The translations under genes and the position numbers were made by a program. The notes beneath the pieces were generated by a model. The model searched no databases. It saw nothing but the letters and a program-made list of their open reading frames with translations, and was not told the origin of the DNA. Positions 7,699-54,476 of a DNA stretch of 64,000 bases are shown here, piece by piece. Within the stretch, counting starts at the first letter, position 1; the number at the start of each line of letters is the position of its first letter. The DNA is taken from contig JAMQCK010000002.1 in the NCBI GenBank assembly GCA_024196135.1, positions 1-64,000 on the forward strand, written 5' to 3'. The stretch comes from Pleurotus ostreatus/Saccharomyces cerevisiae fusant (Eukaryota; Opisthokonta).

Positions 7699-9359
7699 AT
7701 GTTCAGGTCCAGCGAAAAGGTTGCAGTGTTTTGGGACTACGGTGAGCTCGAAGTTTGTCCTCTTGATGGTCGCGTGCTCACCCACAATGGTCTAGAAAAC
7801 TGCGCTCCTCCAGCACAGGTGTCTGGCTACGACGTCGTCGACACTATTCGAGGCATCGGGCACCGCTACGGAGCCATATGCCAGCTGAAGGCTTACCTCG
7901 AGCCTCCAAGGCAGTATGTCGACCCGTCAGGGACGGCGCGGCTGCTTGCCTTGCGAACCGAATTGCAGGCGTCGGGTGTATCCTTGACGGACTGCCCGCA
8001 CAACGGAATGAAGGAGGTCGCTGACCATATGATGCAGGGTGAGCTCGCCGTCCTGCTCCCTTGTTCGTGCAGGTACTCACCAGGTTGTCGCAGTCGATAT
8101 GCTGGCATTCGCTCTCGACCATCCGGCCCCAGCGACCGTTATCCTCATCACTGGCGACCGCGACTTCGCTTACGCAACAGCCGTGCTACGGGCTCGACGC
8201 TACCGCGTCGTCATACTGTCGCTCCCCCACATCCACGAGACTTTGAAGGCGCAGGCCGACGAGTGGCTGGAGTGGGGACCTGCGGTGCGGGCGACAGAAG
8301 ATCGACGGAGAGCAAGAACTGCGGGAAGCAGTGCTTTCAGCGAGTCTGCGGAGGTGCTACGATCGACGCCGAAGGGAAGGGCGACGCGCGCGAGCTCACT
8401 GTCTTCAGTGACCTCAACCGTGTCTGCCCTATCCTCGTTGTCGTTGTCGCCGCCTTCGTTCCCCATCAGTGATGACAGGGACCTGTCCACCCCACCGTCT
8501 TCACCGCCATCTCTGACGACGTCGCCTGCCTCCACTAGTCAGGCGCCGGACGCCTACGATAGCGATGTGACGCTTGCGAACGTGTCGCCGTCTCCGACGC
8601 AGAGCGTTGAAGACAGGAAGCCCACGGACGTGCACCAGTTCGCGAAGACTTTGCTTGCATGCACCCCTCCGAACCTGCGTTTCTCCGATTTCTGGAGGGC
8701 GTCTCCTCAACTCATGTCTCCGGTGGTGAAACCCTTGTCGCCTGTCGTGACGCCTGCGACAGCGACAATAACGGGTAGTGTGGCGTATGCGCACCTCCAG
8801 CCAGATGTAGCAGCGGCGACTCCGCCCATTGCTTCGGCCGCGCCGGTGTACGAGGCACCGCCCATAGTCGTCCCCGCGCCGACCACGGTCTCCATCGCGC
8901 CCGCGCCTGCACCCTTAGAGGAGATACCGGCTATACCATCGGCCGTAGTGCAACCTCCTGTCGCCGCATCGCTTCCGACACCCCCTCCCTCCACGGCCCC
9001 GACCGCGCAGAACACACCGCAGGCTTCGGGTAGTTCGCCTGCTCAGATGAAAATCGTGCCGCAGAACTACGCCGCCCTCGTAAGTGTACTGCAAGATCAG
9101 CGTCGCCTCGGGAAGACGCAGTTCAGTCGCACTGAGCTCGCACGCTTGCTGAACATGAAAGACGTACGTTTACGCTCGCAACTTCGTACTCGCAGGCTGA
9201 CATTTACGACAGAGCATGGTCTACCGTCGCACGAAGGTCTCCGGTTGCAAGCAGTACCTTGCCCTAGCGGCCAAAGAAGGGTTTGTGGATCTAGGGGAAA
9301 CAGCCAGCACATCTTTGGCTTGGGTCGAACTGAAAGAGGAATGGCGAACGACATTTTGA
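7699..9359 (+). CDS. NYN1: NYN-domain RNase with one C-terminal LOTUS/OST-HTH-like module
   Basis: Four exons (7699-7741, 7796-8038, 8094-9163, 9213-9359) give 500 residues. The NYN (limkain-b1-type, PIN-like) domain fills about residues 1-170: VAVFWDY joins across a phase-1 intron to ENCAPP, then ASGVSLTDCPHNGMKEVADHM, then after a second phase-1 intron VDMLAFALDHPAPATVILITGDRDFAYA. The aspartates of FWD, AD and GDRDF, the expected metal ligands, are all present. The first intron is 54 nt and open, so a naive ORF wrongly retains 18 residues. A disordered Ser/Pro-rich linker leads to one module near residues 385-490 (YAALVSVLQDQRRLGKTQFS to ASTSLAWVEL), completed by the last short exon. It is the plus-strand, most upstream member of the cluster and is more divergent than NYN2-6: it has a seven-codon longer exon 2. 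Confidence 0.85.
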
Positions 9360-9940
9360 GTGGGCTTGCGGACTGGGAAGGCGAGCAACCGGTGAGAGTG
9401 CTGGCACCTCGCGGGCCTCCCGCATGGCGATAGGGCCATGTTGTATGCGATTATTCGAAGTGCTTGATCTATAACTTATTGGGCTTGTTGACTTCCACGA
9501 CGGTAGCACGCGAGCCCTATGAGCAAGCCGGTGAACTGTAGATCCGTCTCACCTCATGTCTTCCTGATAGCGGCGCGATCAGGCAATTGCTGAGCTTGAA
9601 GTGGCGCTGCTCGTGACCGGTTCAGTAACACAAGCGCGGTCCCAGGACGGTCGCTTGCCAGCAGCCACAGTGGCTTTCGGATCCGGCCGCAATCTGCTGT
9701 GTCATATAGGGCACGCAGGCGACTTACACTCACCGCATTGCATATCTCTAGCGTGGTACTGAATGCACAAACATGGAGGAAACGTGCATTTCGCATGTAG
9801 AACCTTGGTAATGAGAGGAGGTGTGCATCACAAGAACCCAAAACGACCCGTACCGACGTAAAAGGACAAGAGGAAAGCTGGAGGCATTGGAGCGCATTGA
9901 CTAACGCCGCGCACCAATGAGGAGGCTGCGATGACAGCGC
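9360..9940. other. Intergenic region between convergent genes
   Basis: Between the 3' ends of NYN1 and CMC2. Only short ORFs without recognisable products; no RNA gene seen. Confidence 0.4.
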
Positions 9941-10277
9941 TCAGCTCTCCCAAAAGTCCTTCTTCGCCTTTTCGAACTCGGCCTTCTTCCGCTTGGATTC
10001 CTCGCGGTTCTGTGCCGACCGGTTATTGCGCTAAGCTCTGTAAGCCGAGTGCGTGACGAGCGGGGATCGGACAAACTACTTACAGCCGCAATTAGGCACT
10101 TATTCAGCAGGTTCTCAATGTTCGAACATTTATCCGTCCATTTCGAGTAGGGGTCGGCCTCGCAGGCTTCCAGCGCCTCGACGAGTTCCTTGCAGTCTTT
10201 GCACCATGAGATATCAGTAGATGCAAGCAGATAGGGCGCCTACCGATACGCTTTTGGCCTGATAGTTGAGGATGCAT
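9941..10277 (-). CDS. CMC2: COX assembly mitochondrial protein 2 (twin CX9C)
   Basis: Three short exons (10244-10277, 10084-10196, 9941-10030) give 78 residues starting MHPQLS, the typical CMC2 start. Two CX9C motifs are visible: CKELVEALEAC and CSNIENLLNKC, the helical hairpin that is oxidised by Mia40 in the mitochondrial intermembrane space. The basic tail NREESKRKKAEFEKAKKDFW fits the family. CMC2 helps cytochrome c oxidase biogenesis. All exons are too small for ORF calling, which is why the gene is easily missed. It diverges from the transketolase gene, with 173 bases between the start codons. Confidence 0.9.
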
Positions 10278-10450
10278 TGAGGCGCAAGGAAAAGAGGAAC
10301 AGCAGTGCGGCAGTAGGTTGCGGCGGTCCGGGATCGGTCCGGGGTCGCCGAAGCGGACGCCTTCGGAGATTAGCGCATTGTGGGGATATTTATCGATCCG
10401 CGCAGATCTTGCTCTCCTCCTGCCCTTCTCCTCGTTACCACTTCACTACC

Positions 10451-13154
10451 ATGGCAGGATTCGCCCCCAACCCCGCCGACAACATCGCTGTTGCGACCAT
10501 CCGCACTCTCGCCGCCGATGTCGTCGCCAAAGCCAACTCCGGCCATCCTGGTCAGCCCCTCTGGAGGCGTACGCTCCCCTGGTAACTAACAAGCCCACAG
10601 GCGCGCCGATGGGCATGGCGCCGGCCGCCCACGTCCTCTTCACTCGGTATGTGGGACCCTCTTTCGAGAAAATCACTACTGAACCTTGTTCTAGTTTCCT
10701 GAACGCGAACCCCAAGGACTCGAAGTGGTTTAACAGGGATCGCTTTGTTCTGTCGAATGGGTGAGTTTCCTGCTCAACTGCAGCCATCTCATGTGCTCAC
10801 GTTCATGACAGACACGCGTAAATTGCCTTTCCTTTCATCTTGCGACACTCCACTCAAGTTTACCCCAGTTGCGCCCTTCAGTACATCATGCTGCACTTGA
10901 TGGGCTACAAGCTCTCCATGGACGACCTCAAGCAGTTCCGTCAGCTGGACTCGCTGACCCCCGGTCACCCTGAAGCCGGCCACACTGACGGTAAGCCAAA
11001 AACCTCATGCGTGTGCATGGCGTATGCTCAATGATGTCTGTAGGTATCGAAGTGACCACTGGGCCTCTTGGTCAGGGTATCTCGAACGCTGTTGGTCTTG
11101 CGATTGCGCAGGCTCACTTGGGGGCTGTCTACAACAAGCCCGGCTTCGAGCTGATCAACAACTACACCTACGGTTCGTCCATCCAGTTGCTCCACAACAT
11201 TCTTACTAACAAAAACCGCAGCTTTCACCGGTGATGGCTGCCTTATGGAGGGTGTTGCCAGCGAGGCCTGCAGCTTGGCTGGTCATCTGCAGCTCGGCAA
11301 CCTCATCGCGGTATGTAGCAAGACCAACAGCTAGGGATGTTGAGGCTTACTCTGCCCCGTAGATCTACGACGACAACCGTAAGCCTTTTATCCGAGGCTC
11401 TAAGCTTCTTACAAACGCATCGTTGCAGACATCACCATTGATGGTGACACCAATGTCGCGTTCACTGAGGACGTCCAAAAGCGCTTTGAGGCATACGGCT
11501 GGCAGGTCTTGCACATCGACAATGGCGACAGGTCAGCCAGACGAGACAATGTCCTCGTCACAGCTGCTCATCCATCCGCAGTGACCTCGAGGGCATCTAC
11601 AACGCTATCGCCGCTGCCAAGGCGGAGAAGAACAAGCCGACCCTCATCAAGATGAAGACCACCATTGGCTTCGGCTCTAAGCAGCAGGGCACCCACGGCG
11701 TCCACGGCTCGCGTAAGATTGCTCGCCTCACTCATCGACCCCCCATTGACTTCGCATAGCGTTGAAGGCTGACGATATCTCGGCGCTGAAGACCAAGTTC
11801 GGCTTCAAGCCCGAGCAGCAGTTCTACGTTCCGGACGAGACGTACGCCGCCTACGCTGAGGTCGCGAAGAAGGGTGCCGAGCTGGAGGCCGCATGGGACA
11901 AGCTCCTCGCTGCGTACGGCGAGAAGTACCCCAAGGAGCACGCCGAGCTCACCCGCCGCATCGCTGGCAAGCTTCCGGAGGGCTGGGAGAAGGCCCTTCC
12001 CACCTACACCCCGTCGGACCCGGCGCAGGCGTCGCGCAAGCTGTCTGAGATCGTCCTCAGCAAGCTCGTCCCCGTCCTCCCGGAGCTTGTCGGCGGCTCT
12101 GCCGACTTGACTGGGAGCAACTTGACGAAGGTCAAGGGCCAGACGGACTTCCAGCCGCCCAGCACCAACCTCGGCACGTATGCTGGCACATATATTCGCT
12201 ATGGTGTCCGTGAGCACGGTATGGGCGCTGTCGGTAACGGTCTCGTCGCGTACGGCGGCATCATCCCCTACGTCGCGACGTTCTTGGTGCGTGCATATCT
12301 TCCGTATCCTTTGCCGTGTCTAATGGCCTGGATAGAACTTCGTCTCATATGGTGTTGGCGCCCTTCGTCTGGCTGCCTTGAGCCACCAGCAGGTCATCTG
12401 GGTCGGCACGCACGACTCCATCGGTCTCGGTGAAGATGGCCCGACCCACCAGCCGGTTGAGACCGCTGCCCACCTGCGCGCGATTCCCAACCTTGCTTTC
12501 TGGCGCCCGGCCGACGGCAACGAGACCTCCGCTGCGTACTACAAGGCGATCACCATGTCCGGCACGCCGTCCGTCCTCTCCTTGTCGCGCCAGAACCTCC
12601 CCAACCTCGAGGGCTCGACCATCGAGCGCGCGTCGAAGGGTGGCTACGTCGTCCACGAGGTCGAGGGCGAGGACCTCACCATCGTGAGCAGCGGTAGCGA
12701 GGTGTCGATTGCCATCGAGGCTGCGGGTATCTTGAAGGAGCAGGGCATCAAGGCTCGCGTTGTCAGCTTGCCATGCTGGCTCTTGTTCGACCAGCAGCCG
12801 AAGGAGTACAGGCTGAGTGTCCTCCGTAGTGGCGCGCCGATCTTGTCGCTCGAGGCACTTTCGGTACGTTCAGGTCGTCACACATGTTCCGAAACCCTTC
12901 TGACATCGACTTTTACAGACCCTCGGGTGGCAGAAGTACAGCCACGAGCAGTATGGTCTTCCGGCATGGGGTGCGTCTGCCCCGTACCAGAAGGTGTACG
13001 AGAAGTTCGGCATCACTGGCAAGAGTAAGTCAAGGTCTGCCGTTCGTGTTGCGCGCCGCTAATGCATCCCTCAGACATCGCCTCCGTCGGCAAGAAGATC
13101 ATCGACTTCTACAAGGGCAAGGAGGTTGTGTCTCCCCTCGACAAGGCGCTCTGA
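10451..13154 (+). CDS. TKL1: Transketolase
   Basis: Fourteen exons give 682 residues covering the full enzyme: exons at 10451-10550, 10601-10646, 10695-10760, 10812-10817, 10869-10990, 11044-11172, 11222-11310, 11363-11378, 11429-11531, 11582-11712, 11760-12286, 12336-12863, 12919-13024 and 13075-13154. Motifs are [44 protein letters not shown] (thiamin diphosphate/Mg binding), [17 protein letters not shown], the pyrimidine domain with [29 protein letters not shown], and [15 protein letters not shown] at the C-terminal domain. It transfers two-carbon ketol units in the cytosolic non-oxidative pentose phosphate pathway. The fourth exon is only six bases long and carries the invariant His72 of NGHA. 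The gene shares a short divergent promoter with CMC2. Confidence 0.97.
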
Positions 13155-15349: not shown

Positions 15350-17639
15350 TCAGAGGTTCGCCTTCCATCTATCGTCCAACATGATCCAGGGCGATTCATC
15401 TCCCTCACCACCACCGGTAGTAATGATATTCGCGCGCCTCGCCCGGTACACATAGTCGGAAAAGTCCTTGCAATCCCTCGACAGCTTCCCATACAGCGTC
15501 GGATGCCGCTTGCGAAGTATCGTATTCACCACCTGCCGATTCGACTTCGTATACCCAGCCCGCAGCTGCGCCTGCAGCAGTTGCACAAGCGGTACAAACT
15601 GCGGCGGCAGCGACGGGTCGTCGATCGGTGGAAGCTCAATGGCCTCCGCCTCCTCCGCATAGGCTGGCGTCAGCTCGACGTACGCCTCCGCGCCCGAGCC
15701 TCCGGGAGCGACGAGACCCGCGGCCGTGGCTGCGGCGATGTAGTTCTTGAAGCTCTGCAGGCCGGCTTTCTGGTAGACGTCCTTGTCGGCGCGAAGTAGT
15801 CGGCCGCTCAGTTCTTTGCGACGTGGGCGAGAGCTGCCCGCTGCGTAGAGCGAGCGCATGACGTCCATGAGCGACTGAAAATGAGCTGGGAAAGTGGGCA
15901 TTTCGACCGATGGCGACGGCGCGTTCTCTGTCGTAAAGAAAGTCGATCCACCAGCAAGGGGGAACATTGGCTGCTCCTGTTGAGGTGCAAGAGAATTTGA
16001 GGCACCGCTCTGCACGATGATCTCTGCGGCGTCATCTGCGTTGTTGGGGACCGAAGTGCTTGTTTGGGCCGCGGTAGCCTTAACTGTGTTAGAGGTAGAA
16101 GGAGTAGAGGTGGAAGACGCCGATGGTGTTGAGGTAACCAATGATAGATCATACGACGGCGAAGCCACTCCTGGTACTAGATTGACTGCAGCGCTCTGCG
16201 GAAGGGTATCCGGAGCGGCATCTTCTTCGTCATCTGCATTGGTATAAGGAGTGGACAGGGATATCCACTCCTTTGCGCCCTCCCCGCCCAGCAGCACGAT
16301 GCCTTGGGCAGCCGCCATCGAGCAGTATTCTTTGAAGTTATTGGCACCGGCGTTCGCATAGGCGTCAACATCGCTTCCTATTAGCTTGATACCGACAGCG
16401 GACACCTTTGGGAAAGGTTCGCCTTCTTCGAGATAGGCGCGTAAGATTCGGATGAGAGGCTCGAACCGTAGGTGCGGTGATTGTAAAGGAGCGTTAGGAA
16501 GGACTGGTGGTGGCGGTGGTGGTAAAGTCGGTTCCGAGGGTATTACCGGTGCTGGTATGGTTGAAGGACCAGAAGGTGAAGGGATATCAGCTGCGCTATC
16601 CGGTGATATCCGAGAGGCAGGCGCGGGTCTGGGAGTCGCAACCGGGACAGCGGGCGTCTCGGGAGGTGATAGAACCGAAGGCAACAGCGTCTGTTTCCTC
16701 CTTGTTGCAGGCTCTGGGTCAATTGACGAGGGATTCGCTGACCTGATGTCGGGCTTGGTAGGGGATTGGTATCTTAGTGGCTGCACAGACGCGACCTCGA
16801 CAGATACCACTGCAGGGAAAGCACTCCTTGCAGAACGATCTGGACATAACTCAACAATTAGCATACTGCAATGTAGCTCAGTCAATCTACGCACCCCTTC
16901 GTGGCGAAGCTTGGTCTGGACCGGGGCTTGATGGCGTTACGTCCTGTCTCTCAAGGTTGCGTGCGCTCATAGACGGCGATTGCACATGTCGTAGGCTTCC
17001 CGAGGATGGCGAAGTAGGCGTCTGCATCGGTGGACGGCGCCTGACATCGTACTCGGGCTCGTTGAAGCCCAGTATCTCGGTGGCCCAATCGACGTGTGAA
17101 GCCACCTGGGACAACAGGGTCCGGTGCGGGCCAGGCTGCGAGCGACAGATGAGGATGACATTGTAGTGTCGACGGCGAAGGACAGCCGCCGTGTAGGCGA
17201 AGTCGCGGTCGCCTGAGATGAGGACGAGGGTCGCTGGGGCAGGATTGTCGAGCGCGAATAGCAGGATATCCGCTGGGTAGAGTCCAGATGTCAGAGCGCA
17301 CTCAGCGTCTAATTAGTAGGGGACATACTTTGAAGCATCTGATCGACCGCATTCTTCTGCCCATTGTGAGGGCAGTCGATCAGCGCGACCCCCGACGATT
17401 GCAGCTCTGAGCGCAGGTTGTTGGATATCGTGCACAGCTGCGGGTCCAAGTAGGCATTGAATGCTGTGACGCTCCCATGAGGGAGCGCGACGCGCTCAAT
17501 GTTCTTCGCGATGTCGAAGCCGGAGCAGCCTCCCGTGAAGTGACAGTTCTCTGCTCGTGTCAATCAGCATTCGCATCGCTCTCGACGTGCAGAACGACGT
17601 GCCGTAATCCCAGAATATACCTACAGGCGTACGTGACAT
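15350..17639 (-). CDS. NYN2: NYN-domain RNase with three LOTUS/OST-HTH-like modules
   Basis: Four exons (17603-17639, 17329-17550, 16895-17272, 15350-16809) give 698 residues. The NYN domain starts GIFWDY and continues ENCHFTGGCSGFDIAKNIER, SSGVALIDCPHNGQKNAVDQM and NPAPATLVLISGDRDFAYT; the nuclease aspartates are kept. Modules of about 70 residues lie near 328-397, 523-592 and 617-690, each with the pattern F-x-PL..., K/R-rich middle, F-x-x-Y, GG, W-hydrophobic-L. The first intron (17551-17602) begins with GC where all seven paralogues have GT; no alternative donor restores the frame. A further intron at 16810-16894, absent from the others, links the NYN part to the tail. The NYN sequence and last two modules are closest to NYN4. 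Confidence 0.8.
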
Positions 17640-17976: not shown

Positions 17977-20688
17977 TCAAACCACCACCATCTTCTTCCA
18001 CTTCTTCTCCAACGCGATCCAGGTATGCCCTCCTTCAGGATCGCCACCTAGTACCACGATCCCCGCCTTCTCCGCGCTCGCCACGTACTCCCTGAAGTTC
18101 TCGACGCCCGCCTTCTTGTACACGCCCTTGTCGCGCTGAACCAGCGCAGACCCGATGAGTCCGCGATTAGGGCTCGCCTGCCCCGCCTCGCGGTACTCAT
18201 GCAGTATGCGTACAAGCAAGCGGTACTGTGAGGGCACAGCGGAGATGGTCGGCGGGGGAGGCTTGACGGCGGGCGGAGGTGCCTTCACGGAGGGCGTGCT
18301 GCCCAGGGAGATCCACTCCGCCCCATTATTGGGCCCACTGAGCGTGACGAGACCCACGGAAGCCGCACGCGCCATGTACTCCGCAGCACTGCTGGTCTGC
18401 ACACGCTTGCAGATATTGCAGTCGCACTTGATGAGCTGCTCCCCGACATAGGAGCGCAGCGGCCGCAGCTTCCCCGCCTGTTTCTGCTCTTGCAGGATCT
18501 GCACGAGGAGCCTGTACTCGGCTGGGACCGTCGAGGGAATCGAAGGCGCCGAGGTAGAAACCGATGCAAACGAGGCCGAAGGCGCAGGTGCAGGCGTCGC
18601 TGTGCCAAAGGCCCACTGGGTAGTAGCCGGTGGTGCAGCTTTGACACTGGCTATCGACACCCATTCCGCGCCTCCCTTCGTACCGCCCATTGTCACCAAC
18701 CCCGCCGCACTGGCAGCAGTCACGTATGCGGCAAGACCGCTGACGCCAGCCTTTCTGTATACCTCGGGGTCCTTCGCCTTCAACGAGCTGCCGACGACCG
18801 AGTACAGAGGTCGATCCTGACCTTCTGCCTTCAGCTGCCGTAGCACCCGCATGAGCGGCTTGAAGGAGGCAGAAACCTGGCTAGTGCTGGTTGAGTTTGA
18901 TACAGACGGAGACGGCGTTGCTTTCAGGGTCGGCGAAGGGGACGATGGAGCAGGCGTCGACATCTCCGTCCCGGTGACCCAAGGGACTTTGACCATAACC
19001 ATCTTTGGGTACGACAGCTCGCTCTCGCTCTGAGCGGTGGACGCGGCCGGCGCCGGCGTCGGCGCAGCAGGCGTTCCCGCTATAGCAACCCGCTTCGCAC
19101 CCTCCGCCGGCAGCGCTAGCCACGCGTCCCCACCCTCCCCTCCGAGTACCACAACACCGGCCTGCTCGGCGGCGTCAACGTACTGCTTGAAACGCGATAC
19201 GCCGGCCTTCGCGTACGCGTCCGGGCAAGTGGCGAGAAGGGCATTCCCGACTAGCGAGCGTCGCGGCCTTGTTTCGCCGACCTCGCGTAGCGCGGTCAAC
19301 ACGCGGACGAGCGGCTTGAAGACAGAGACGGATCGGAAGGTCGACGTAGAGGGCGTAGAGGGGTTAGTGGCGAGGAAGGCGGACCATGCTGAGGAAGCTG
19401 GTGCCGGTGATGGGGACGACAAGAGCAGCGTGCTTGGTGATGGTGATGGTGAAGGCGAGGGTGAGTCGAAGTTCTTCGTCAACGCAATCCACGTCTCTCC
19501 CCCTCCTGTAGCGGCACCACCGAGCGTCACCAACCCCGCTTGGCAAGCGCGCATGGCATACTCGGTGAAGTTCTTCACACCAGCCTTCTCATACACTCCA
19601 GGGCAATGGTGCGCCAGGCGATAACCAATCACGCCGCGATTGGGCTGTGAGAACCCGGCGTCACTCCGCTCCTGGAGTAGACGTATGAGCGGCTCGAAGA
19701 CGCCGTGCGCCCCGTCCTTCGCTAGCACAACGGCCGAGGCTGTAGGTGTGCGTTCTGCGGCGGCTGCGACAGACGACGTAGCTGTCTCGCATCTTGTGTT
19801 GGTTGACTTGCAGAGCGATGCGGTATCCTCGGAGGTGCATTTGTCGGCGAGGTCCGTGGACTCATTAGAGGGGCTAGTCGGCGGAGAGGACCAACTGCTG
19901 AGGGAGGCGGACGAACCCGAAGGCGTCGATGGCGAGTCATCCCTCTTCGAGAATGAGTCGTCTGCCTGGGACGTTGTGGTAGACATGATAGTGGATGAGG
20001 AGGAGCGCGACCATTCCCTTCGATGCGGGTCTTCGGGAAGGCCCAGTACCCTCGTGTTCCAGTCTAAACACGCCGACACCTGCCACGCTAGGCTCTTGTG
20101 CGGGCCCGGCTGAGAATGGCACAGTAGTACCACCTCGTATCGTCGGCGGCGCAGGACAGAAACAGTGTACGCAAAGTCCCGATCGCCTGAGATGAGGATT
20201 AAGGTCGCAGGCGCGGGATGGTCGAGGGCATAGGCCAACATGTCGGCTTGCAAAAGATTAGCTGACAGACGTGGAGCGGGGTACTAGCTACTCACTCTGT
20301 AGCATCTGGTCTACTACATCTTTCTGCCCGTTGTGCGGGCAGTCTACGAGGGCCACGCCGCTAGACTGCAACTCGGACCGCATAGCCGCGGGTAGCGCGC
20401 AGAACTGCATGTCCAAGTAGGCATTGAAGTCGGAGACCGTGCCATATTTCAAAGCAATCTGCTCAATGGCCCTTGCGATCTCGTAGCCAGATCGTCCAGC
20501 TGAATATCGACAATTCTCTGGTAAAGATCGGGCGTCAGCGACGTGCCTCGCGAATGTATGGGTCCCTTCAGGCCTTCCTCCCGCCTTACGTGGACATGCA
20601 CTCAGGGAAAGCAGATACAGGGTTGATTGGTACGAGGAGTACACTCACCAAAGTCCCAAAAGATGCCTACGCTCGCCGGACCAGTCAT
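17977..20688 (-). CDS. NYN3: NYN-domain RNase with five LOTUS/OST-HTH-like modules
   Basis: Three exons (20649-20688, 20296-20517, 17977-20246) give 843 residues. The NYN domain reads GIFWDF-ENCRYSAGRSGYEIARAIEQ, FNAYLDMQFC, SSGVALVDCPHNGQKDVVDQM, LAYALDHPAPATLILISGDRDFAYTV; nuclease aspartates are intact. After a Ser/Thr-rich linker come five modules near residues 271-343, 397-466, 549-620, 665-735 and 762-835, the largest number in the cluster. The fourth is degraded in its middle (KCDCNICKRVQTSS instead of the usual DPxVYxKAGV), while its GG-W ending is kept. Modules are separated by Pro/Ala/Ser linkers of differing length, one a (SP)n run. The long first intron (20518-20648) and the second intron are in the positions shared by all family members. 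Confidence 0.87.
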
Positions 20689-37152: not shown

Positions 37153-39761
37153 TCAGCGCTTCTTCGGCGCACTGACACTGAGCACCAGCACGTCCTCCTC
37201 TTCCAGGTTGTGGCTCGCGATCGTAGTCGAGTTCGTCAGCATCTTGCCCTGGTACGAAAGCCGGATGCGCGACACGGGCGCTGCGCTCCCCGTCGCCTGC
37301 AGAATGCGGTCCCGCAGCGTCGACACAAGGAGGTTGAGCGGCAGCTCCGACAGCGTGACCGTCGTCCCGTCCAGCTTCCACTCCGGTTTCGTATCGTCCT
37401 TGGGGAGCTGTACTTGGAGCGAGATCGGGTACTAGGAGCGCCAATAAGCACGGTCATCCCCCGGATGCTATCTTCACTTACAGGGTGCATGGCAATCCAG
37501 TCAGCCTCAGGATAGAGCTGCCCGCCCGGCAACTTCGCGACGCGCTGCCGCTTAGCCGGGGGCGCCGCGTCTGCGCCGCCGTCCATCTCGTCCGCCGAGC
37601 GAACCTGGCCGGCCTGCATTGGCGGCGCGGGCGAACCCTGCCCAGGAGGGTAGCCGTACCCGCCGGCTGGCGGCTGACCCTGATAGTGCATGGGCGGCAG
37701 CATAACAGGTGGCTGCGCTGGGTACGCAGATGCAGGCTGAGGTCCAGATGCGACGGTGGCGGCAGAATATGCCGGGTTTGCTGCGCTGCCGCCCGGCGCC
37801 GCAGGTAGGGACGATGCGCCAGTCAACGGCGCCGGAACGGAAGATGCGGGCGCCAATCCTGGACCGATAGCGCTGGTCTCTTGCCTGTCAGATACAAGTT
37901 AGCGCCAGTAGTTGATTTCCGTTATGAAGGTTGCTTACGGTCCGAGACCCTTCGCCCGATGGATGGCAGCAATCTGCTCCTCGAAGTTGACATTGCTCGA
38001 GTAAGCATCGACCGTCCGTGCCATCGACGCCGTGTGACCATCCCAGACAACCTTCTCCCGCTCCTTGCGTCTTTGCCGCTCCTCCTCTTCCTCCTTCTTG
38101 CGCTTCTCCTCGTCCGCCTCCGCACCAAAGATATCCACACGCGTGCGAGCGAGGTTTTTGAGCGACGAGACAACGTTGGCGCCGCTGAGGAGCTCGGAGG
38201 CACGCGCACGGCGCGCTTCGTTCATGTCACGCTGCTCCTTCCACTTCGGGTCGAGCAGCTCGATACGCATGTGCTCCTGCAGCTCGTCGACGGGGATCTG
38301 CTGTCCGCAGACCGTGCAAGTCGTCATGGTCTGTTTCGACTTTGCGCCGACTAGAAGAACATGAGTATGCGGCTAACGACAGAGATCACGATCACTCACG
38401 TTTGGGAACGTAGTCCGTGCGGATCTTCATAGGACCGGAGCCAGCCTGCATGGCCTGAGCGTGCTCAATTTCGCGAGCGCGCTCCTGCTGCTCTCTCCTT
38501 GCGCGGTCTTCTGGTGTTTCCGCGACGCCGACGGGCTGCATGACCGTGTCCTGCTGCTGTTGCGCAACATTCTGCGCAGCTTGAGCTTGAGCAGCGGTCG
38601 CGGCAGCTTCGGCTTCCGCTGCAGCTTGACGCGCGCGGTGAGCTTCGACATCTTCGGCCGTGTTCTCCAGGATCATGGCAGCGTAACGCTTCTGCGCCAG
38701 AGTCATGTTCTCGACTTCCTGGACGCTCATCGGAGGAGGCAGTTCCGAGGTCGCATCGGCGGCGGTGAACTCGATCGTCTGCACGATGGCATAGTCGTGC
38801 CAGTCAATCTCCGCGAACGCAACTGCGTCAAAATGTGAGTGGCCAGTGACTTGGTTATAACGATAGTGCACGTACTGCGCTCCGCCTCCTGGTCATCCTG
38901 CCTCTTCTTCTCCCTCTCACGCTTGTTCTTCTCCCACTTCGCGTGCCGCTTCGCAATCTCGAGTTTCCTCCAGCGCGCGCCGGGCTCTGCATCCAGCTGC
39001 AGCTGTTCCAGCATGTCCTTATTAGGGTGCAAGACTTTGGTGTACTGGTCGACCAACCGATTGAAGTAACCGAAGAGGGAGTGCGTCGGTCGCAGGAATT
39101 CAAACTGAAAATTGCGCGCCTCACGAGCAGAAAGGGCCTGGATGAAATTGCGTCCGCGACGCGCGGTAAAGAGGGCAGTGAGCTTCATGATGTCGCTGAA
39201 GGCCGTTTAGCGTACGAAGCGGGTGATAGTAGGGGACGCACAGGTCAATTGCTGAGATATTGGGCATGTCCATGATGAAGTCAGGCGCCGGTGGTTCAAG
39301 TCCATGGTCGACCACCTTCACCTCAACATCCTTCGCCTGCGGGGTTGCCGTGCCGGTCTTGGGGGCCTCCTCGACCTCTCCTTGCGCGACCTTTGTCAGC
39401 TTGTGCCGGTAGTAGGCGTGGTAGGGGTCGGCAGGGTTCAGGAAGGAGAATTTAGGATCATTGCGCTGTCCCTCGCGAATCTTGTCCTCAAACTGAGGGG
39501 GATTGGCTGACCGCGCAACAAAGGTTGCGGTACGGTCAATGACAGCTGTAGAGGGTCCTCGTTAGTACCTCTACTGCATGAAGTGCACAAGTACGCACAT
39601 TTGATTTCCGGGGGAGGGAGAATGAGGCCGCTTGCAAAGCGCGCCACATGAGGCGCCTCTGCGTTCCCATTGACGCCGTTGGCCTCCCCGTTCAAGAGGC
39701 CGTTGGGTGGAGTCTGCACTGCGACGCTCATGTCAGGCACCGGCGTCGAGGTCGATGACAA
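37153..39761 (-). CDS. SF3A1: Splicing factor 3A subunit 1 (Prp21-type)
   Basis: Seven exons (39599-39761, 39242-39545, 38876-39195, 38400-38822, 37939-38350, 37482-37884, 37153-37431) give 767 residues. SURP1 is at about 55-105 (SVIDRTATFVARSA, DPKFSFLNPADPYHAYYRHKL) and SURP2 at about 155-205 (LDIMKLTALFTARRGRNFIQ, LRPTHSLFGYFNRLVDQYTK). A Lys/Glu-rich helix, the PRP21-like region, and a zinc-binding TCTVCGQQIPVDELQEHMR follow. A Pro/Gly/Ala linker with basic PPAKRQRVAK precedes the C-terminal ubiquitin-like domain (about 675-767, DGTTVTLSELPLNLLVSTLR, RLSYQGKMLTNSTTIA) ending APKKR. It is a core part of the U2 snRNP that helps branch-point recognition; the UBL domain binds U1 stem-loop 4 in animals. 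Confidence 0.95.
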
Positions 39762-39979: not shown

Positions 39980-42763
39980 ATGAACGACACACCAGTTGCC
40001 ATCTTTTGGGATTTCGGTGCGTTGCCAGTCAAAGGAGATCACCCGATACTCATCGCGACACAGAGAATTGTTCCCTCGCTTTGGGCCGGACGGGATTCAC
40101 GGTCGCTCGCAGCATCGAGTCCATCGCACAGAAGTATGGCTCGCTCAAGCTCTTCAAGGCCTACCTGGACGCCCAGAAGCAGCCCTTGGGCTCAGACATC
40201 TTCCGCGCTGAGCTGCAATCGTCCGGCGTCTCTGTCACCGACTGCCCTCACATTGGCAGGAAGGAGGTAGCGGATCGCATGCTGCAAGGTGTGTCCTCCC
40301 CCGACCCTCCCCGTCTTCTACTGATTCATCTTCCCTCAGGCGATCTGATGGCCTTTGCCCTCGACAACCCTGCCCCCGCCACAGTCATCATTATTTCGGC
40401 AGATCGGGACTTTGCCTATGCTGCCTCCGTCCTGCGCCAGCGACGCTACAATGTCGTCATGATCTCACACAGTAACCCACGGCCAAATCTCTGGCTCACT
40501 TCACAAGCAATCGACTGTTACGACTGGAAGAAGGACGTTCTTCACGTCGAAGAACGTGCTACGCCAATTCCTACCATCCTCGGGAAATCGGTTCCCACCC
40601 ACGCAGAGGTGCTAGCACAGTGCTTAGCACCCATCCCTCCCACCACCGGTGCCAATCCTTCCACCGTTACCACTTCCAGGGCGCCAGCGCCTCCTGCTGC
40701 TGCGCCACAGGCCGTCGCGAAGACGGCAGATCCCCCATGTGAGTGCCATCAGTTTCGCTCTTGTGCTTAGTCAAACCATTCACCCTGCACTAGCGCCGAC
40801 AGACAACTCTTTGTCGCACATCCCGCCCAAGCTGCGGGGCCTCGTTCAGGCGCTCCACAAGCTCGCGCCCAAGTTCGGGCCTGTGCAGAGGACGGACGTG
40901 TACGGTCAAATCAGGACCATCGACCCCAGATGCAGTAGGGACGAGTTCAAGCAACTCCTACGCGCGGGGCGCGCCCAGCATTTTATCAAGACCGGCAAGA
41001 AGCCCCACAAGTGGGTTTCCCTCAGGCCCGAATGCCTGACTGCGAAGACCTCGGACGGACGCACTTCGGAGGAGCTCGTCGACTCCGGCCACGAATCATG
41101 CTCGTCGGACGAGGACGACACCCTCTGCGAAGTGCCGATCCCCCTCGGCTTCGACATCCTAGTCCGCGCCCTGCGCGACATCGGCCCCACCGGTGACTAC
41201 AGCATGAAGCTCGGCGACGTCGCCGTCCTCATTGCGAAGCACAACCGGCGGCCCTACCTCCTCGCTGGCGTCGGTAAGCTCAAGGCCTACCTCGAGGTTG
41301 GCGAGCGGCACGGCGTCATCCAACGCGTCGGCCCCAAGACTACCTACCTCATGGGGCACGTGGCGCTCGCCGACAAGTATCGGCCTCTGGGCCGCCCATC
41401 CCCGCCGCCCTTCGTCATGACACACAGCAGGCGCTCGAGCGACACGACCGTCGTCTCGGACAGTGTCGAGCAGGCGAGCGAACTGGCTGAGAAGCCGCAC
41501 AGCTACGTCGGCTCCGATTCTGGCTTCGAGGAAGAGAGCGGGGCGGAGATGACCGCGCCGGCGTCGGTCTCGGTGAAGATAGAGGCGCCTGCGTGCCCTG
41601 CTCAACCGGAGTCTGCACCCGTTGACCCGCCGAAGGTCGACGAAGTGGTCGCTGCCCCACCCTCCGAGCCCGACAGTATCGTCGCTGACGAGTCCGCGGA
41701 GACGGACATTGCTTCCCAGGCACCGTCCATCCCCTCCGGTTTCGACGTGCTCGTCCGCGTCCTCCAGGAGGTCGGCCCAGGTGGCGAGTACCGCATGAAG
41801 CGGCTCGATCTCGCTGAGCTCATGTCTGCCAAGCACGGCCGCATGCCGTACGTCCAGGCGGGCGTTGGCAAGTTCAGCCGTTACCTCGAGCTGGCGGTGA
41901 GCTTGGGCATCGTGGAGGTCGAGGGGAAGATTGTCAGCGGGAAGAGGAAGGCGAAGACGGCAGTGGTGATACTGAGGGAGGCATATCGGGCGAGTCCCAT
42001 TGCGTCACCGTCTGTGTCGCCAATGCCATCGGAGGAGTCTGAGGCTCCTGCGCCGACCTCTGTGCCCGAGCCCGAGCAAGCGCCTTCCATCGAGGAGCAT
42101 GCTTCGCTCGAGACGGAGGCGCCTATCGCCACCTTCGAGGCGGCTGAGCTCACGGCTGCAGAGGAAGTCACTGCGGAAGAGTGCACGACTTGCGAGTCGC
42201 CTGCCACCGTAGTGAACGAGCCACTGGCCGCCGACACCCAGGAGGTGCCCCTCGCCGTGAAGACGACGCCGTTCAGCGAGCAGTCGTCCTGGGCTTTTGA
42301 GCTCATCTCACCGAATCCACCTGAGATCGAGATTGACTTTTCCTGCACCGAGTCCCTCGAGGCTCTGGTCGCCTCCAGCAACACATTCATGACTTTCGAC
42401 AAGCCATCCGTAACTGACATCGACGAAGAAGACACGGCTGCCGCTGCGGAAATACACATCTCCGCGCCTCAATCGTTCGTCTCCGACATATCGACCGTCG
42501 ACGTGGACGATCCAACACCCTCGCCACCGCCGTCCGCGACGGCCGGCGACATCGACGTACTCATTGAGGTCCTACACAGTCACCTCGACAAGGGTTTCAC
42601 GGAGCCCCTTCGCAGCATTGTCGATTTCGACCTTCGCTATCGCCTCGGCTGGGAGGGAAACCTCAACGGTCTCTTCCTGCAGGCCGAAGCCGCCGGTCTC
42701 ATCCGCACTGGCGTGCATCGATACAGCGGGCTGGAATGGGTTGCCCTCGTACCCGCATACTAA
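39980..42763 (+). CDS. NYN7: NYN-domain RNase with four divergent LOTUS-like modules
   Basis: Four exons (39980-40016, 40064-40288, 40340-40738, 40794-42763) give 876 residues. The NYN domain reads MNDTPVAIFWDF-ENCSLALGRTGFTVARSIES, SSGVSVTDCPHIGRKEVADRM, FALDNPAPATVIIISADRDFAYAA; the glycine before the catalytic DRDF is changed to alanine but all acidic residues remain. After the NYN domain come four modules: LRGLVQALHKLAPKFGPV, GFDILVRALRDIGPTGDY, GFDVLVRVLQEVGPGGEY, and C-terminal DIDVLIEVLHSHLDKGF to LEWVALVPAY. Modules two and three share a GP-GxY and YxLAGVGK pattern unlike the other paralogues, and the region 42000-42500 is a Glu/Ala/Thr-rich acidic spacer. It lies on the plus strand, divergent from SF3A1 with 218 bases between starts. 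Confidence 0.82.
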
Positions 42764-47765: not shown

Positions 47766-48887
47766 ATGGCAGGCGGTGGTGACGACTTTGACGACGACTT
47801 TCAGCCCGATGAACTTGTGGCGCTCTCCGATGACGAGGCTGGTGAAGGCGTAGACCTAGAGGACGTCGGCCACAGTGCCGAAGGGGCCGACGAGGAGGAC
47901 GATCAGGACCCGACCCCCAATGATCGCTCGGTCGAGGACAAGAAACGGAAGCGGAAGGAGAAGATGAAGGAGAAGAAAGCTAAGGTGCGCGGCGTCTGCC
48001 CTTGTCTCGCGAGCAATCGGGTGACCCTCCGAGCAGAAGCGCAAGCTCATTGAGAGCATGATCCCGGACGAGCGGGAGGAGACGTCGGTGGCAGCCCGAA
48101 CCCCCTACGAGCTCGCGCAGTACCTCGCCACTGCACAGTCCAAGACCTTCAAGGACATGTCTGCCATTGAGCTCGAAGACATGCGCATCCCAGGTGCGCG
48201 CCACCCTCTTTCATTGCCATAAAGTCCTTAATTGACGACCAGACCTTGCTTATCCGTAGAGGCTGCCATTGTGGACACGACAATATGGACAGGCCCTCGA
48301 ACGCTTGATAACCTGGTCGACTTCATCATGAAAGGTAAGCCCACAGATTTTGTACGGAGGCCGCGACCACTAAGCGCGTCACCAGCGGTACCCTCACTGA
48401 AGACGCGCCTCGGGCAGAAGTCAAAGGCCAATGGCGCCCCCACCATGATCTACATTGCGGGCGCGGCTTTACGTGTCGCCGATGTTACCCGCGTGCTCAA
48501 GAACAAGAAGCTACGCGGAGAGAAGGGCGGAGACGTCGCAAAGCTATTCGCAAAGCACTTCAAACTGCAGGACCATGTTCAGTACCTGAAGCGCACCGCT
48601 ATCGGTGCTGCCGTTGGCACACCAGGTCGAGTGGGCAAACTTCTCTGCGAGACAGGTACGTCCTTTGTATCCGCCAACCGAAATTACCGCTCATCGACCA
48701 TGCCGCAGATGCCCTCGCCACGACTGCCCTCTCCCACATCGTTCTCGACATCACCTTCCGCGATGCCAAGAAGCGCAATATCTTGGACATCCCAGAGACG
48801 CGGGACGAGCTCTTTAGGACGATCCTGGGCTGCCCGAAGGTATTGAAGGGTATCAAGGACGGCAAGATCCAGGTCGTGCTGTTCTGA
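47766..48887 (+). CDS. CMS1: Cms1/CMSS1-like 90S pre-ribosome factor
   Basis: Five exons (47766-47984, 48037-48193, 48260-48334, 48386-48655, 48709-48887) give 299 residues. The N-terminus is acidic (DDFDDDFQPDELVALSDDEA) and then Lys-rich (KKRKRKEKMKEKKAK), as in nucleolar proteins. The C-terminal RecA-like half carries APTMIYIAGAALRVADVTRV, DVAKLFAKHFKLQDHVQYLK, and IGAAVGTPGRVGKLL, the DEAD-helicase-like 'TPGR' element retained in the family, and ends with FRDAKKRNILDIPETRD. Yeast Cms1 is a component of U3-containing 90S particles in small-subunit assembly. The gene is divergent from ERI1, 139 bases apart. Confidence 0.85.
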
Positions 48888-50138: not shown

Positions 50139-50605
50139 ATGTTCGGTGCCTTCAGGCCTACTCATGTAGCATGCGGCGGTAACCTATGGTGCGCAGCGCA
50201 AATGCGTCCAGCGACTGAGCTTAACAGCATTACAGGAAGATGCCCATGAAGCTCTCGGTGACGCGCAAGGCGAACGTGCGCTCCCGGCTGAAAAAGGTCG
50301 ACGCCGTCATTGAGGCCGTACGGGCGAGCGGAGTCGAGTGCACAGCACTGGTGCGTCTACCTCCCTGCTACGCGAACTTCATGCTGATGTGTGCCATCAG
50401 GAGCGCGCCCTTGAGCTACCGAAGGAGAGTGAGATGCCGGCGCGGGACAAGTACACCGTCTTCTCGCGCACGTCGCGGAATTACCGAAAACCTATCCAAT
50501 TCGTGCCCAAGTGGACTAGGGTGCGTGCTTTCTATCTACTCCCACACTACTGTCCACTTAATTGTATTATAGTTAACGCAGAGAGTGAACCCCAAGGGTT
50601 TCTAA
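50139..50605 (+). CDS. MRPL31: Mitochondrial large ribosomal subunit protein mL60
   Basis: Four exons (50139-50188, 50236-50350, 50401-50520, 50582-50605) give 102 residues. The start MFGAFRPTHVACGGNLWKMP, the basic helix RKANVRSRLKKVDAVIEAV, MPARDKYTVFSRTSRNYRKP and the final FVPKWTRRVNPKGF are the hallmarks of the fungal mL60/Mrpl31 protein. The last exon carries only seven codons plus stop. The cytochrome b5-domain gene diverges from it, with 160 bases between starts. Confidence 0.9.
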
Positions 50606-51042
50606 TCCCCAAGCGCTCCGTCTACTGCATACTTCCATGCCTGTGCTACCCGGTCAATCAATAATCCCTCTCTCATTCCGTGCCATACAAAGTTCGCTCC
50701 AAGCAACATGCCAAGTCGTGCAACTGCAAGCTTGAAGTCGATGCTCCCTCGCGCACTCAGCCTCAGCCTCGACCCGACCACTTTCCAAAGTGTCGCTCGA
50801 AAATTCAGACAACGTCAGACCAAAGCTCCGGATGAAAATGCATGAATGACGAGTGCATACGAGTGCATATGATACAGGTATCGCATAAAAGTGGTGTAGT
50901 GTCGCGAGTGCATAAAGCATGATTGTTCCAGAGTCCGTCCAGATGCCATAATTGTCTTCCAACTTAATCAGTCCTTCCTTCCCCTCCAGCCCCTTCGCCC
51001 CTCCTCTCCTCTCCTCTCCTCCCGCAGGTCCCGCATCGTCCT
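50606..51042. other. Intergenic region with CT-rich tract
   Basis: Between the convergent mL60 and NYN8 genes. No gene; a CTCCT microsatellite at its end is listed separately. Confidence 0.45.
51000..51022. repeat. (CTCCT)n microsatellite
   Basis: Four to five tandem CTCCT units lie just beyond the NYN8 stop codon, in its probable 3' untranslated region. Confidence 0.8.
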
Positions 51043-54000
51043 TCAAACCTTTACCTCCGTCCACTCATCCTCCAAAGCCACCCACTGCACTCCCTGATAT
51101 ATCCCTTCGTACACGATCCCCTCCTGTGCCGCCACCTCGATGTACTGCTTGAAGTTCCGCAGGCCCTGCTCGCAAATGAGTATAATTCCTTCCGACATCC
51201 ACACTATACAGCGACAAAGCAGGACACGACACTCACCGCGTGCACATACGCATCCTTGTCGAACTGCATGAGCCGGATGGCCAGCACACTGCGCGACGGG
51301 CCGAACTTGCCCTCCGCCAGGAAAGCTTGCAAAGCCTGGATGAGCGGCTTAAATCGCACCCTGGGCTCGCTCGCTGCAGCTGTCGCACTGGCGGGTGCCG
51401 CTGTCATCGTCGTAGTTGTCGTAGTCGTTGCTTGGAGCGTCGCTGTCGTCGTCGAGGCCTTGACCGCGTCCGCACTGGCCTTCTTCGTAGCCGCAGTGGT
51501 CATCTTCGGAGCCAGTTCCTCCTTCACCGTGGCCAAGGTCTTCAGTCCCGCACTTGCCTTCGAAGGTTGTGTAGTGCTCGTTGCCGTCGGAACCGGCGCC
51601 GGCTTGCTAGGCAATGAGGACGGCACTGCGGGCGTTTGCCCCGCGGCCATAGCGGTCACCCAACTCGACACCGATACTGGCTTCGCCGACGTGCCCTCCA
51701 CGTTCACGATCTCCTTCAGCGGCTTCCACTTCGACGCACCGGGCGCTGGCTGACTCGCAGCAGAAGCTTGCGTCGCACCCGACGAAGACATGGTCACGTC
51801 CATCGCTGTCACCGTAGCCTTGACAAACTGCGGCGGCGCCCTGCCCTTGACCTCCGTCTTCTTCGCCACCTGCGGAGGCACGAACGGCGTGTTGGACTTC
51901 GATCTTGACCTCGCCCGCGGCCCCGTCGGGACATGCAACGTCGACGCCGACCTCGCTGGCGGCGGCCTGTGCATTGGCGACCCCATCGGCGACGACGATC
52001 GCGCACGCGCCGTCGGCGTCCTGGACCTACCTCTCGGCGGAGTTCGCTCGCGGACAGACACCGAGGCACGCCGCTTGCCAACAGCGCGAGATGTCCTTGA
52101 CGGACTACGCGGCGGCAGCGCGGACCCGCCCCTTCGTTTCGGGCTCGCCGAACGTGACCTCGAGCGCGCGTTGCGAGTGTCCCAAGCGCCGCGCGAGACG
52201 CGTTCCCAGTAGGTCTCGTCGCCCGTCATCCAAATGACATCGTCCCCGAAGTCGTTGTTCTTCACGCAGGTGCCCTGCAAAGGCGGACGCCGATACTCCT
52301 GCCGTCCGTCAACGAGCATTGGTGAGGGTGAACGCGAGCGCGACGAACGCTGGCGCCGAGGACCTGGACTTGGGCCGCGCTCCGGACGATAATGCCGGTC
52401 GACCGCGTTGCTCCTGAGGCCTTCGGGACTCGTCAGCCTCTCATACAGAGAAGGACGGCGCGCCTGCTGTCGAGAAGGTCCTGCTGCCTGTGAGCTGGCG
52501 GGCGGCGCCGAGGCCTTCTTCAGCACATATGCTGCAGCCGCTTCGCGCGCTCGCGCAGCGGCTTCACGTTCGCGTGCTATCGCCTGCTCGCGTTCGGCTT
52601 GAGCCTCGTCTGGCTTGGGAGCTTGTATGTCGAGATCCATGGATACGTCTTCGGCGGCCTTCTGCTGCCCCTGAACTTGGTCCTTCAGCGCCTTGCCAGC
52701 CTGTGAATTAGCATCGCGGACTTCACAAAGGGACCGCCAAAATTCCCCTACCTCAGCTTTGGCCGAAGCCGTCAAGCGGTTCGCGATCTCGACAGCCTTC
52801 TGTCTTGCGAGCTCTGCACTGTCGCGAACAGCTTCGGTGCTCGACCCAGCTTCAGGTTGACGGCACGGTCCTTCGGTCTTCTGCAGCTCAGAACCCTTGT
52901 CATGGTGCAATCTCGTAGGCGAGGGCGGTAAAGACGAATCAAGTTCCATGTCCGCTTCGCCCATGTCGCATTCAGACTCGACCCCTTCCATCGGAGTCGG
53001 TGGCGGTGACGGCGAACGCGGAGGTTCTTGCACTTCCTCTTCGACAATTGCTTGTAAGGGCATCGAAGACGACGACAATGAAGGGCCGGACGATGCCTGG
53101 GCCGGACACTGGGCAAGGTTCTTGCTTTTCTTGGGTATCGGGATGACAATCGGGTCGCGCTTGCCTTCTTCTAGTAGTACCACACTCGGCGACCTCGATC
53201 GTGCGGCTGCAGACTGTGGCACTTGCAAGAGATTGACGTGAGCGGCTGTGACCTTGATGCCGGGCGCTGGGGCAGACGGCTCTACCAAAGTCGCGTCGGA
53301 AAGCGAAGACGATTGCGGGACAATCTGAACCTCAGGCGTCTCTGGCTGGCGGGCCGATGCAGACAATACCTGTTCTGCTCCGCCGTTTGATAAAGTTGAA
53401 AGCAGAAGATCGATCTTGCCCGTGTCTAGAGGAAATCGCTGCGCCTGAGGTTGTGATGACGAAGCTACCGCTTCATGTGGAAGAGTACGCGTCGCAGGTT
53501 GAGGCGGGCCTGTTGCGGATACGGGAGCGCTAGGTAGTTGGGAAGCCTGAGCGCGAGCATCATCAACTCTTGTGACGGACGTCGAAGGTTGCGTTTTGTT
53601 GACTAATCGACTGTTGATGAGCGCACGAGCGGCGATAGTCAATGCCACCGACGACGCCGAAGACCTTGCCTGTTGAACCTGCTCATTGACACCAGCAGGG
53701 TGTTGCGCAGTTCGCCAGTTGGTAGTCGTAGAAGACCCTGCGACGGTACCGTATTGCCAGGCATCAATATTTTGCCGAGCTAGGGCAGCCTTGTCTCGAA
53801 CGGTAGCCTTCTGCTGCGAAGGTCCCGGCGCAGGGCGTTTTGGTGGCAAGCTCGGATGAACACGTTTCGGGATGGCAGACGTTCCAAGCACCTCCGTCCT
53901 CCAGTCAAAAACCTGCGTCGCTTGCTCGCGAAGACAGGTGACTGCCTGGGCAGGTGTGATAATTACTATCCGGAAGTTGCGATTGCGCAGAATGGCCGCC

Positions 54001-54476
54001 GCATAGGCGAAGTCTCGATCACCGGAGATGAGGACAATGGTAGTGGGCGGCGGATTATCCCACGCGAATACAAGCATGTCGACTGCAAGAAACGGCAATA
54101 GCGATGTAAGAACGAAGGCGTTGGCAATGTGGAGTGAACTTCGTTGTGGTCCTCGTACCTTGAAGCATTTGATCAGCGACATCCTTGTAGCCGACGTGCG
54201 GAGTATCTGTGAGCGAGACGCCAGAGATCTGAAGCTCAGCGCGGACATTCGTGGCGTGCCCATTCACTTGCAAGTATGCCTTAAAGAGATTGATAGTGCC
54301 GTATTGCAATGCAATGTCGCGTATCCTCTGGACAGCACCGTAGCCGGAGTAGCCCTTTGGAACTGGGACATTCTCTGGACCGTTGCTCAGCACATGAACC
54401 CCATACAGGCGATCAGCGACGCACCATAGTCCCAGAGTATACCAACGACGCCGTTCCCAGTGGCCTGTGAAGTCAT
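51043..54476 (-). CDS. NYN8: NYN-domain RNase with long SR-rich linker and one C-terminal LOTUS-like module
   Basis: Four exons (54425-54476, 54159-54374, 51237-54082, 51043-51165) give 1078 residues, the longest of the family. The NYN domain reads GVVGILWDY-ENVPVPKGYSGYGAVQRIRD (ENV replaces ENC), ISGVSLTDTPHVGYKDVADQM, VDMLVFAWDNPPPTTIVLISGDRDFAYAA; acidic residues intact. A linker of about 780 residues holds an Ala/Glu/Gln helical part (AREREAAARAREAAAAYVLK) and an Arg/Ser section (RQRSSRSRSPSPML, NARSRSRSASPKRR, RARSRSKS) like that of splicing-associated proteins. One module (FKPLIQALQAFLAEGKFGPS, YVHA-GLRNFKQYIEVAAQEG to GVQWVALEDEW) is split by the last intron, as in NYN1. NYN1 and NYN8 thus share architecture at the two ends of the cluster. 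Confidence 0.85.

What the first reader, a model, noticed from the sequence alone, without database searches (positions are those of the whole stretch)
7699..54476. Cluster of eight NYN-RNase/LOTUS-like genes, a candidate undescribed RNA-targeting system
Eight paralogues (7699, 15350, 17977, 25354, 28280, 31197, 39980 and 51043 as low ends) occupy 47 kb between housekeeping genes. Each has an N-terminal limkain-b1-type NYN domain with the FWD, VD/AD and GDRDF aspartates kept, so all are predicted active nucleases, and a C-terminal tail of LOTUS/OST-HTH-like modules. In animals the same pairing (MARF1/limkain b1) destroys retrotransposon and other mRNAs in germ cells. A local expansion in a fungus suggests diversification against changing RNA targets, such as transposons or mycovirus RNA. 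Target and role are inference.
Basis: partly seen in the sequence, partly recalled or inferred. Interest (0 to 1): 0.93.

Follow-up and report, generated by a model that had tools for sequence, protein, structure and literature searches.

The report
Cluster of eight RNA-cutting enzyme genes
A split-gill mushroom (Schizophyllum commune or a very close relative) carries all eight copies that we could find of one family of predicted RNA-cutting enzymes within 47,000 bases, each with one to five modules that likely grip RNA, so an old RNA-destroying enzyme has probably been multiplied into a set in which each member would cut different RNAs.

The parts
7699..9359 (+). g1: NYN + 1 LOTUS-like module, 500 aa; exons 7699-7741, 7796-8038, 8094-9163, 9213-9359; E at the D215 site
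15350..17639 (-). g2: NYN + 3 modules, 708 aa; exons 17639-17603, 17550-17329, 17272-16895, 16839-15350; first intron would be GC-AG, third intron chosen among several candidates
17977..20688 (-). g3: NYN + 5 modules, 843 aa; exons 20688-20649, 20517-20296, 20246-17977
25354..27760 (-). g4: NYN + 4 modules, 768 aa; exons 27760-27730, 27679-27458, 27407-25354
28280..30635 (-). g5: NYN + 4 modules, 731 aa; exons 30635-30605, 30547-30326, 30278-28638, 28581-28280
31197..32975 (-). g6: NYN + 2 modules, 544 aa; exons 32975-32945, 32887-32666, 32578-31197
39980..42763 (+). g7: NYN (SADRDF in place of SGDRDF) + 3 modules and 1 weak one, 876 aa; exons 39980-40016, 40064-40288, 40340-40738, 40794-42763
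51043..54476 (-). g8: NYN + long disordered-looking middle + 1 module, 1078 aa; exons 54476-54425, 54374-54159, 54082-51237, 51165-51043; Q at the D215 site
9068..9335 (+). LOTUS-like module of g1, split by the intron 9164-9212
15377..16465 (-). three modules of g2: 16256-16465, 15671-15880, 15377-15598
18010..19698 (-). five modules of g3: 19480-19698, 19111-19320, 18652-18864, 18304-18516, 18010-18225
25417..26814 (-). four modules of g4: 26605-26814, 26128-26343, 25675-25884, 25417-25608
28295..29571 (-). four modules of g5: 29362-29571, 29011-29217, 28678-28866, 28295-28504; the second is the one folded alone
31218..32033 (-). two modules of g6: 31824-32033, 31218-31418
40886..42748 (+). 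modules of g7: 41150-41338, 41741-41929, 42554-42748, and a weak one near 40886-41023
51073..51353 (-). module of g8, split by the intron 51166-51236
11750..13025 (+). transketolase exons between g1 and g2 (not part of the family)
38395..38892 (-). PRP21-like splicing factor exon between g6 and g7 (not part of the family)
48232..48843 (+). CMS1 exon between g7 and g8 (not part of the family)
54928..55500 (+). Mog1 gene, right flank

Best explanation
The eight genes encode proteins with a MARF1-type NYN domain and one to five likely RNA-binding LOTUS-like modules; each is predicted to grip its own set of the cell's RNAs with its module array and to cut them with the NYN domain, so the cluster would be an old Schizophyllum set of specialised RNA-decay enzymes. 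Shown: the genes, the shared introns, the NYN fold match, the kept aspartates, the winged-helix modules and their profile link to OST-HTH/LOTUS, the genus-level origin of g2-g6, the slow change of NYN and modules. Inferred: metal-dependent cutting of single-stranded RNA (as reported for MARF1), RNA binding by the modules, different targets for different arrays, mainly host mRNAs. g8 may have weak or no cutting activity because its D215 site is Q.
Confidence: 0.6

Rival explanations
1. RNA immunity: the paralogues would recognise and destroy transposon or mycovirus RNA, and the array differences would reflect different invaders.
For: Local expansion in one genus, arrays of 1-5 modules, and a repeated mobile-looking ORF beside g1.
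Against: Domains are the conserved part and linkers the variable part between strains; orthologues of g3, g4, g6 are one-to-one in two other species; the genome keeps Piwi-domain (Argonaute-like) matches on 8 contigs, so RNA silencing has not been lost and replaced.
Confidence: 0.17
2. Selfish or incompatibility genes: some members would act as poison in a gamete- or spore-killing or nuclear-conflict system.
For: Two Arabidopsis pollen-killer proteins, KPOK3A and KPOK3C, carry limkain-type NYN domains (PMC11761171, passages); the paralogues are tandemly arrayed.
Against: Where recovered, members recur in several strains and species as orthologues with little change; no linked antidote was recognised, though this was not searched systematically.
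Confidence: 0.05
3. Redundant housekeeping: copies kept by dosage or drift, all doing one general RNA-decay job like plant DNE1.
For: Same architecture as DNE1 (NYN + two LOTUS; PMC10226599, passages); NYN strongly conserved in all groups compared.
Against: Paralogues differ in module number and identity (NYN 44-72% identical), while the differences between g3, g4 and g6 are kept across species.
Confidence: 0.18

Closest known systems
MARF1 (limkain b1), mammals
   Different: MARF1 is described there with two RRMs and eight LOTUS domains and a decapping-factor motif; Pfam shows no RRM in the window ORFs, full-length g4 or 53 homologues, arrays here have 1-5 modules, and there are eight linked genes
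DNE1, Arabidopsis
   Same: NYN followed by two LOTUS domains and no RRM mentioned in the passages seen; endoribonuclease acting on diverse mRNAs (PMC10226599, passages)
   Different: not expanded into a cluster in the passages seen; fungal modules are not found by Pfam OST-HTH
Bacterial NYN (DUF88)-OST-HTH proteins
   Same: NYN plus one or two OST-HTH segments that the fungal module profile also hits; family described in PMC2848206 (abstract and first part read)
   Different: NYN only about 21-36% identical to the fungal query over the best segment; single genes
Asgard NYN-LOTUS-OHA proteins (found here)
   Same: eukaryote-type NYN, 39-40% identical to the fungal query, and at least two modules hit by the fungal profile at E 4.7e-25 and 1.8e-20
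   Different: carry OHA (PF14418), which the fungal genome lacks by the same model

Membership tests
NYN-LOTUS endoribonucleases (MARF1/DNE1 type) | N-terminal NYN domain of limkain-b1 type | tested here: met
   8 of 8 by Pfam; Marf1 is the best solved fold
NYN-LOTUS endoribonucleases (MARF1/DNE1 type) | four aspartates needed by MARF1 (D178, D215, D246, D272) | tested here: inconclusive
   Three of four are D in 8 of 8; the D215 site is D in g2-g7, E in g1, Q in g8. Among 158 NYN domains this site is E 103, D 44, Q 7, other 4, so E is common in fungi
NYN-LOTUS endoribonucleases (MARF1/DNE1 type) | C-terminal LOTUS-related module(s) | tested here: met
   24 modules, one weak, tied to OST-HTH by profiles in both directions; the reverse profile is weak for g1, g7, g8
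NYN-LOTUS endoribonucleases (MARF1/DNE1 type) | cuts single-stranded RNA with a divalent metal | not testable with these tools
   needs protein
MARF1 in the strict sense (animal orthologue) | RRM domains between NYN and LOTUS array | tested here: not met
   no RRM in the scanned window ORFs, full-length g4, or 53 homologues; the region is predicted disordered in the P0001 model. Not filed as MARF1 itself
MARF1 in the strict sense (animal orthologue) | C-terminal motif binding EDC4/DCP1-DCP2 | not tested
   -
LOTUS/OST-HTH domain | winged-helix fold of about 70-80 residues | tested here: met
LOTUS/OST-HTH domain | significant profile relation to accepted OST-HTH domains | tested here: met
   hhalign 97.1%, E 7.7e-11; overlap with Pfam OST-HTH stretches on spirochaete proteins (only L073 is over Pfam's own cut-off)
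LOTUS/OST-HTH domain | direct detection by Pfam PF12872 (a detection threshold rather than a biological trait) | tested here: not met
   none and in 0 of 53 homologues; hence called LOTUS-like, a divergent branch
LOTUS/OST-HTH domain | binds RNA | not testable with these tools
   needs protein
NYN gamete killers (Arabidopsis PK3 type) | killer present in some strains and absent from others, with linked antidote | tested here: inconclusive

The most novel reading that the evidence does not exclude
Schizophyllum has built a standing set of eight RNA-guided-by-array nucleases in which the order and number of LOTUS-like modules is an address code: each paralogue reads a different RNA feature set and destroys that class of RNA, working beside RNA interference. 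The underlying enzyme is old enough that its eukaryote-type NYN-LOTUS form also sits in some Asgard archaea.
Probability: 0.2. Interest if true: 0.85.

Novelty: new variant of a known kind. Interest (0 to 1): 0.55.

Why it matters
MARF1 and DNE1 are single genes in the papers seen, and what their LOTUS arrays read is unsettled. A genetically tractable mushroom with eight paralogues whose arrays run from one to five modules is a natural series for asking how array length and sequence set the RNA target and whether NYN-LOTUS enzymes regulate host mRNA or guard against foreign RNA. It also shows that fungal LOTUS modules go unnoticed with the current Pfam model, so the domain's spread in fungi is underestimated. 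If the Asgard proteins are vertical, the enzyme class predates eukaryotes.

Tried and rejected
Direct Pfam detection of the modules: none. Direct PDB sequence search with the 24-module profile: four chance-level hits, none LOTUS. Foldseek with the module: no match at E <= 0.001; LOTUS entries at ranks 18 and 32. The apparent loss of g4 module 1 in some S. commune proteins (P0005-P0007) was rejected as a deletion: the window DNA holds a 189-nt GT-AG stretch whose removal gives the same joint, so it is a predicted intron or an exitron. Arms race as the main reading: rejected as default because domains are conserved and linkers are not. A search of the plant relatives P0168-P0287 for modules: 0 of 120 with either profile. 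Placing the Asgard trio inside or outside eukaryotes: not resolved; eukaryotes without Asgard p-AU 0.395, plants + Asgard p-AU 0.384, fungi + Asgard already together at 60/87. The second protein search returned few Schizophyllum rows although it used window proteins; 7994 candidates were scored, so its absences mean nothing. For the NYN set, 158 of 176 proteins had a long enough domain and 18 were dropped; the printed tree used 74 of the 158 rows, chosen by me.

Full report
What is there. The window is a stretch of contig C391 of a 40.05 Mb assembly in 1277 contigs. The best protein match of g4 is 94% identical over its full length to a protein of Schizophyllum commune Tattone D and 74% to strain H4-8, so the source is S. 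commune or a very close relative. Spliced models give eight genes: g1 7699-9359 (+), g2 15350-17639 (-), g3 17977-20688 (-), g4 25354-27760 (-), g5 28280-30635 (-), g6 31197-32975 (-), g7 39980-42763 (+), g8 51043-54476 (-), of 500, 708, 843, 768, 731, 544, 876 and 1078 residues. All eight share two phase-1 intron positions. The first intron of g2 would be GC-AG and its third intron was chosen among many candidates for its donor and a branch-point-like sequence seen by eye; transcripts were not available.

Is it more than chance. PF01936 gave 8 matches in the whole genome, all in this window. NYN queries from g8 and g1 gave 17 and 17 exon matches, all within the eight genes. A query with the g3 last exon, which holds five modules, gave 20 matches: 19 in the eight genes and one on contig C791. 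First looks are capped, so these are lower bounds. Housekeeping genes sit inside the span: transketolase exons at 11750-13025, a PRP21-like splicing factor at 38395-38892 and CMS1 at 48232-48843, with Mog1 at 54928-55500 beside g8. The tight tandem block is g2-g6.

Modules. A profile seeded with nine window stretches and iterated on the window's frames found the arrays; on the spliced proteins it gives 24 hits, one of them weak. Pfam calls none of them OST-HTH: not in nine window ORFs, not in full-length g4, not genome-wide with PF12872, and not in 0 of 53 homologues. A profile search of PDB sequences found no LOTUS entry. The second module of g5, folded with 20 other window modules, gives a winged helix at mean pLDDT 97.3. 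Structural comparison is consistent with LOTUS but not specific: TDRD7 7.5, TDRD5 7.5, Tejas 7.4, against 8.3 for SAMD1 and 8.0-8.1 for MCM and ORC winged helices.

The sequence link to LOTUS came from prokaryotes. A scan of genome contigs with a NYN alignment gave 65 loci. The profile built only from fungal modules hits 25 of their 1125 ORFs at E <= 1e-3 and 48 at E <= 1; all of these carry NYN, although only 64 of the 1125 do; at E <= 10 there are 72 hits, 16 without NYN. Pfam sees OST-HTH at E <= 0.1 in 6 of 10 of these proteins that I scanned, one of them (L073) over its cut-off, and the fungal profile overlaps those stretches. A profile built only from the prokaryotic segments (88, which may include Asgard ones) finds g3 at 4.6e-18, g4 at 8.2e-14, g5 at 4.4e-9, g2 at 4.4e-6 and g6 at 0.0019, but g8 only at 0.011, g7 at 0.41 and g1 at 3.2; profile against profile gives 97.1% and E 7.7e-11 over 61 columns. 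I therefore call them LOTUS-like, a divergent branch of OST-HTH. The one module outside the cluster, on C791, lies in an RS-rich ORF with what looks by eye like a CCCH zinc finger; Pfam named nothing there.

History. In a NYN tree of 74 rows g2-g6 group with 100/98 support with Schizophyllum proteins and three unnamed metagenome proteins only; g7 with an unnamed protein is their sister (100/97); g8 and its H4-8 orthologue group with an Armillaria row and g1 is unplaced among other Agaricomycetes. S. amplum (contig of 661552 bases) and S. fasciatum (32868 bases) each hold orthologues of g3, g4 and g6, apparently on one contig each. Linked pairs thus exist outside Schizophyllum and the set of eight is an elaboration. 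The protein searches are capped and clustered, so exact copy numbers elsewhere are not known.

Pace of change. Against the window proteins, named S. commune orthologues are 95-100% identical in NYN and 91-100% in complete modules, but 76-94% in linkers (g4: seven proteins, g2: five, g3, g5 and g8: one each). In S. amplum and S. fasciatum NYN is 81-88%, complete modules 51-83% and linkers 29-42%. A tree of 53 modules mostly joins modules of the same position across species (for example g3 M1, M2, M4, M5; g4 M1-M4; g6 M1), on few columns. Against this, P0010, which groups with g2, has four modules where g2 has three, and P0024, which groups with g5, has one where g5 has four. The missing first module in several S. 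commune g4 proteins is explained by a predicted intron that the window DNA could also splice.

What it most likely does. Human MARF1 binds 3' UTRs through LOTUS domains and destroys the RNA with NYN, and its LOTUS domains and NYN are separable parts (PMC7279887, passages). Plant DNE1 has NYN and two LOTUS domains and cuts diverse mRNAs (PMC10226599, passages). The fungal proteins have the same two parts, no RRM found, and long flexible linkers. I infer that each paralogue uses its array to select RNAs and its NYN to cut them, and that the set is specialised and old. Conservation of exactly the working parts across strains, together with the retained Piwi-domain genes on 8 contigs, makes a replacement for RNA silencing or a fast arms race less likely, without excluding defence against a constant target. 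A killer role is suggested only by the limkain-type NYN of two Arabidopsis pollen killers (PMC11761171, passages).

Known or new. OST-HTH/NYN(DUF88) fusions in bacteria and eukaryotes were described in PMC2848206 (abstract and first quarter of the text read; the words fungi and fungal do not occur in its main text). PMC5458760 states that LOTUS domains occur in fungi and lack the Vasa-binding extension (passages). Searches for this family in fungi or for the Schizophyllum cluster found nothing on it (open-licence papers only). I file it as a new variant of a known kind.

Side finding. Three of 227 Asgard genomes searched (L009, L010, L077) encode a eukaryote-type protein: NYN 39-40% identical to the fungal query in the two that the contig scan found, modules hit by the fungal profile and OHA over the Pfam cut-off in all three; five more genomes match only weakly at 24-26%. 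Their NYN domains group with fungi and plants at 100/99, apart from bacterial and other Asgard NYN, but their place relative to eukaryotes is unresolved. The L077 gene lies on a contig at least 1.5 Mb long next to an ORF that I read by eye as an archaeal F420-dependent reductase, which speaks against a stray eukaryotic contig.

Noticed in passing
L009:2483-4018 (+), L010:2507-3982 (+), L077:1495-2979 (+): Eukaryote-type NYN-LOTUS-OHA proteins in 3 of 227 Asgard genomes searched; descent or transfer unresolved. No paper held both 'LOTUS domain' and 'Asgard'.
   Followed up: partly
L089:3659-5110 (+), genome contig C791: One LOTUS-like module outside the cluster (E 5.7e-17), in an RS-rich ORF with a CCCH-finger-like N-terminus by eye; Pfam names nothing.
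   Followed up: partly
window 3434-4822 (-): ORF of 463 aa repeated elsewhere in the genome: 96-99% identical pieces on three other contigs and more distant copies on two more; looks like a mobile element protein by eye.
   Followed up: partly
window 26605-26814 (-): Module 1 of g4 contains a 189-nt in-frame GT-AG stretch that database models of several strains treat as an intron; a possible exitron that would switch the array from four to three modules.
   Followed up: partly
window 51043-54476 (-): g8 has Q at the MARF1 D215 site and a middle of about 840 residues rich in S, P and R; possible RNA binder without cutting activity.
   Followed up: no
genome contigs C802, C345, C416, C580, C347, C636, C519, C110: Piwi-domain matches on eight contigs, so several Argonaute-like genes remain.
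   Followed up: no
window 17551-17602 (-): First intron of g2 would be GC-AG (GCACGT...GAGCAG), unlike the GT-AG introns at the same place in the other seven genes.
   Followed up: partly
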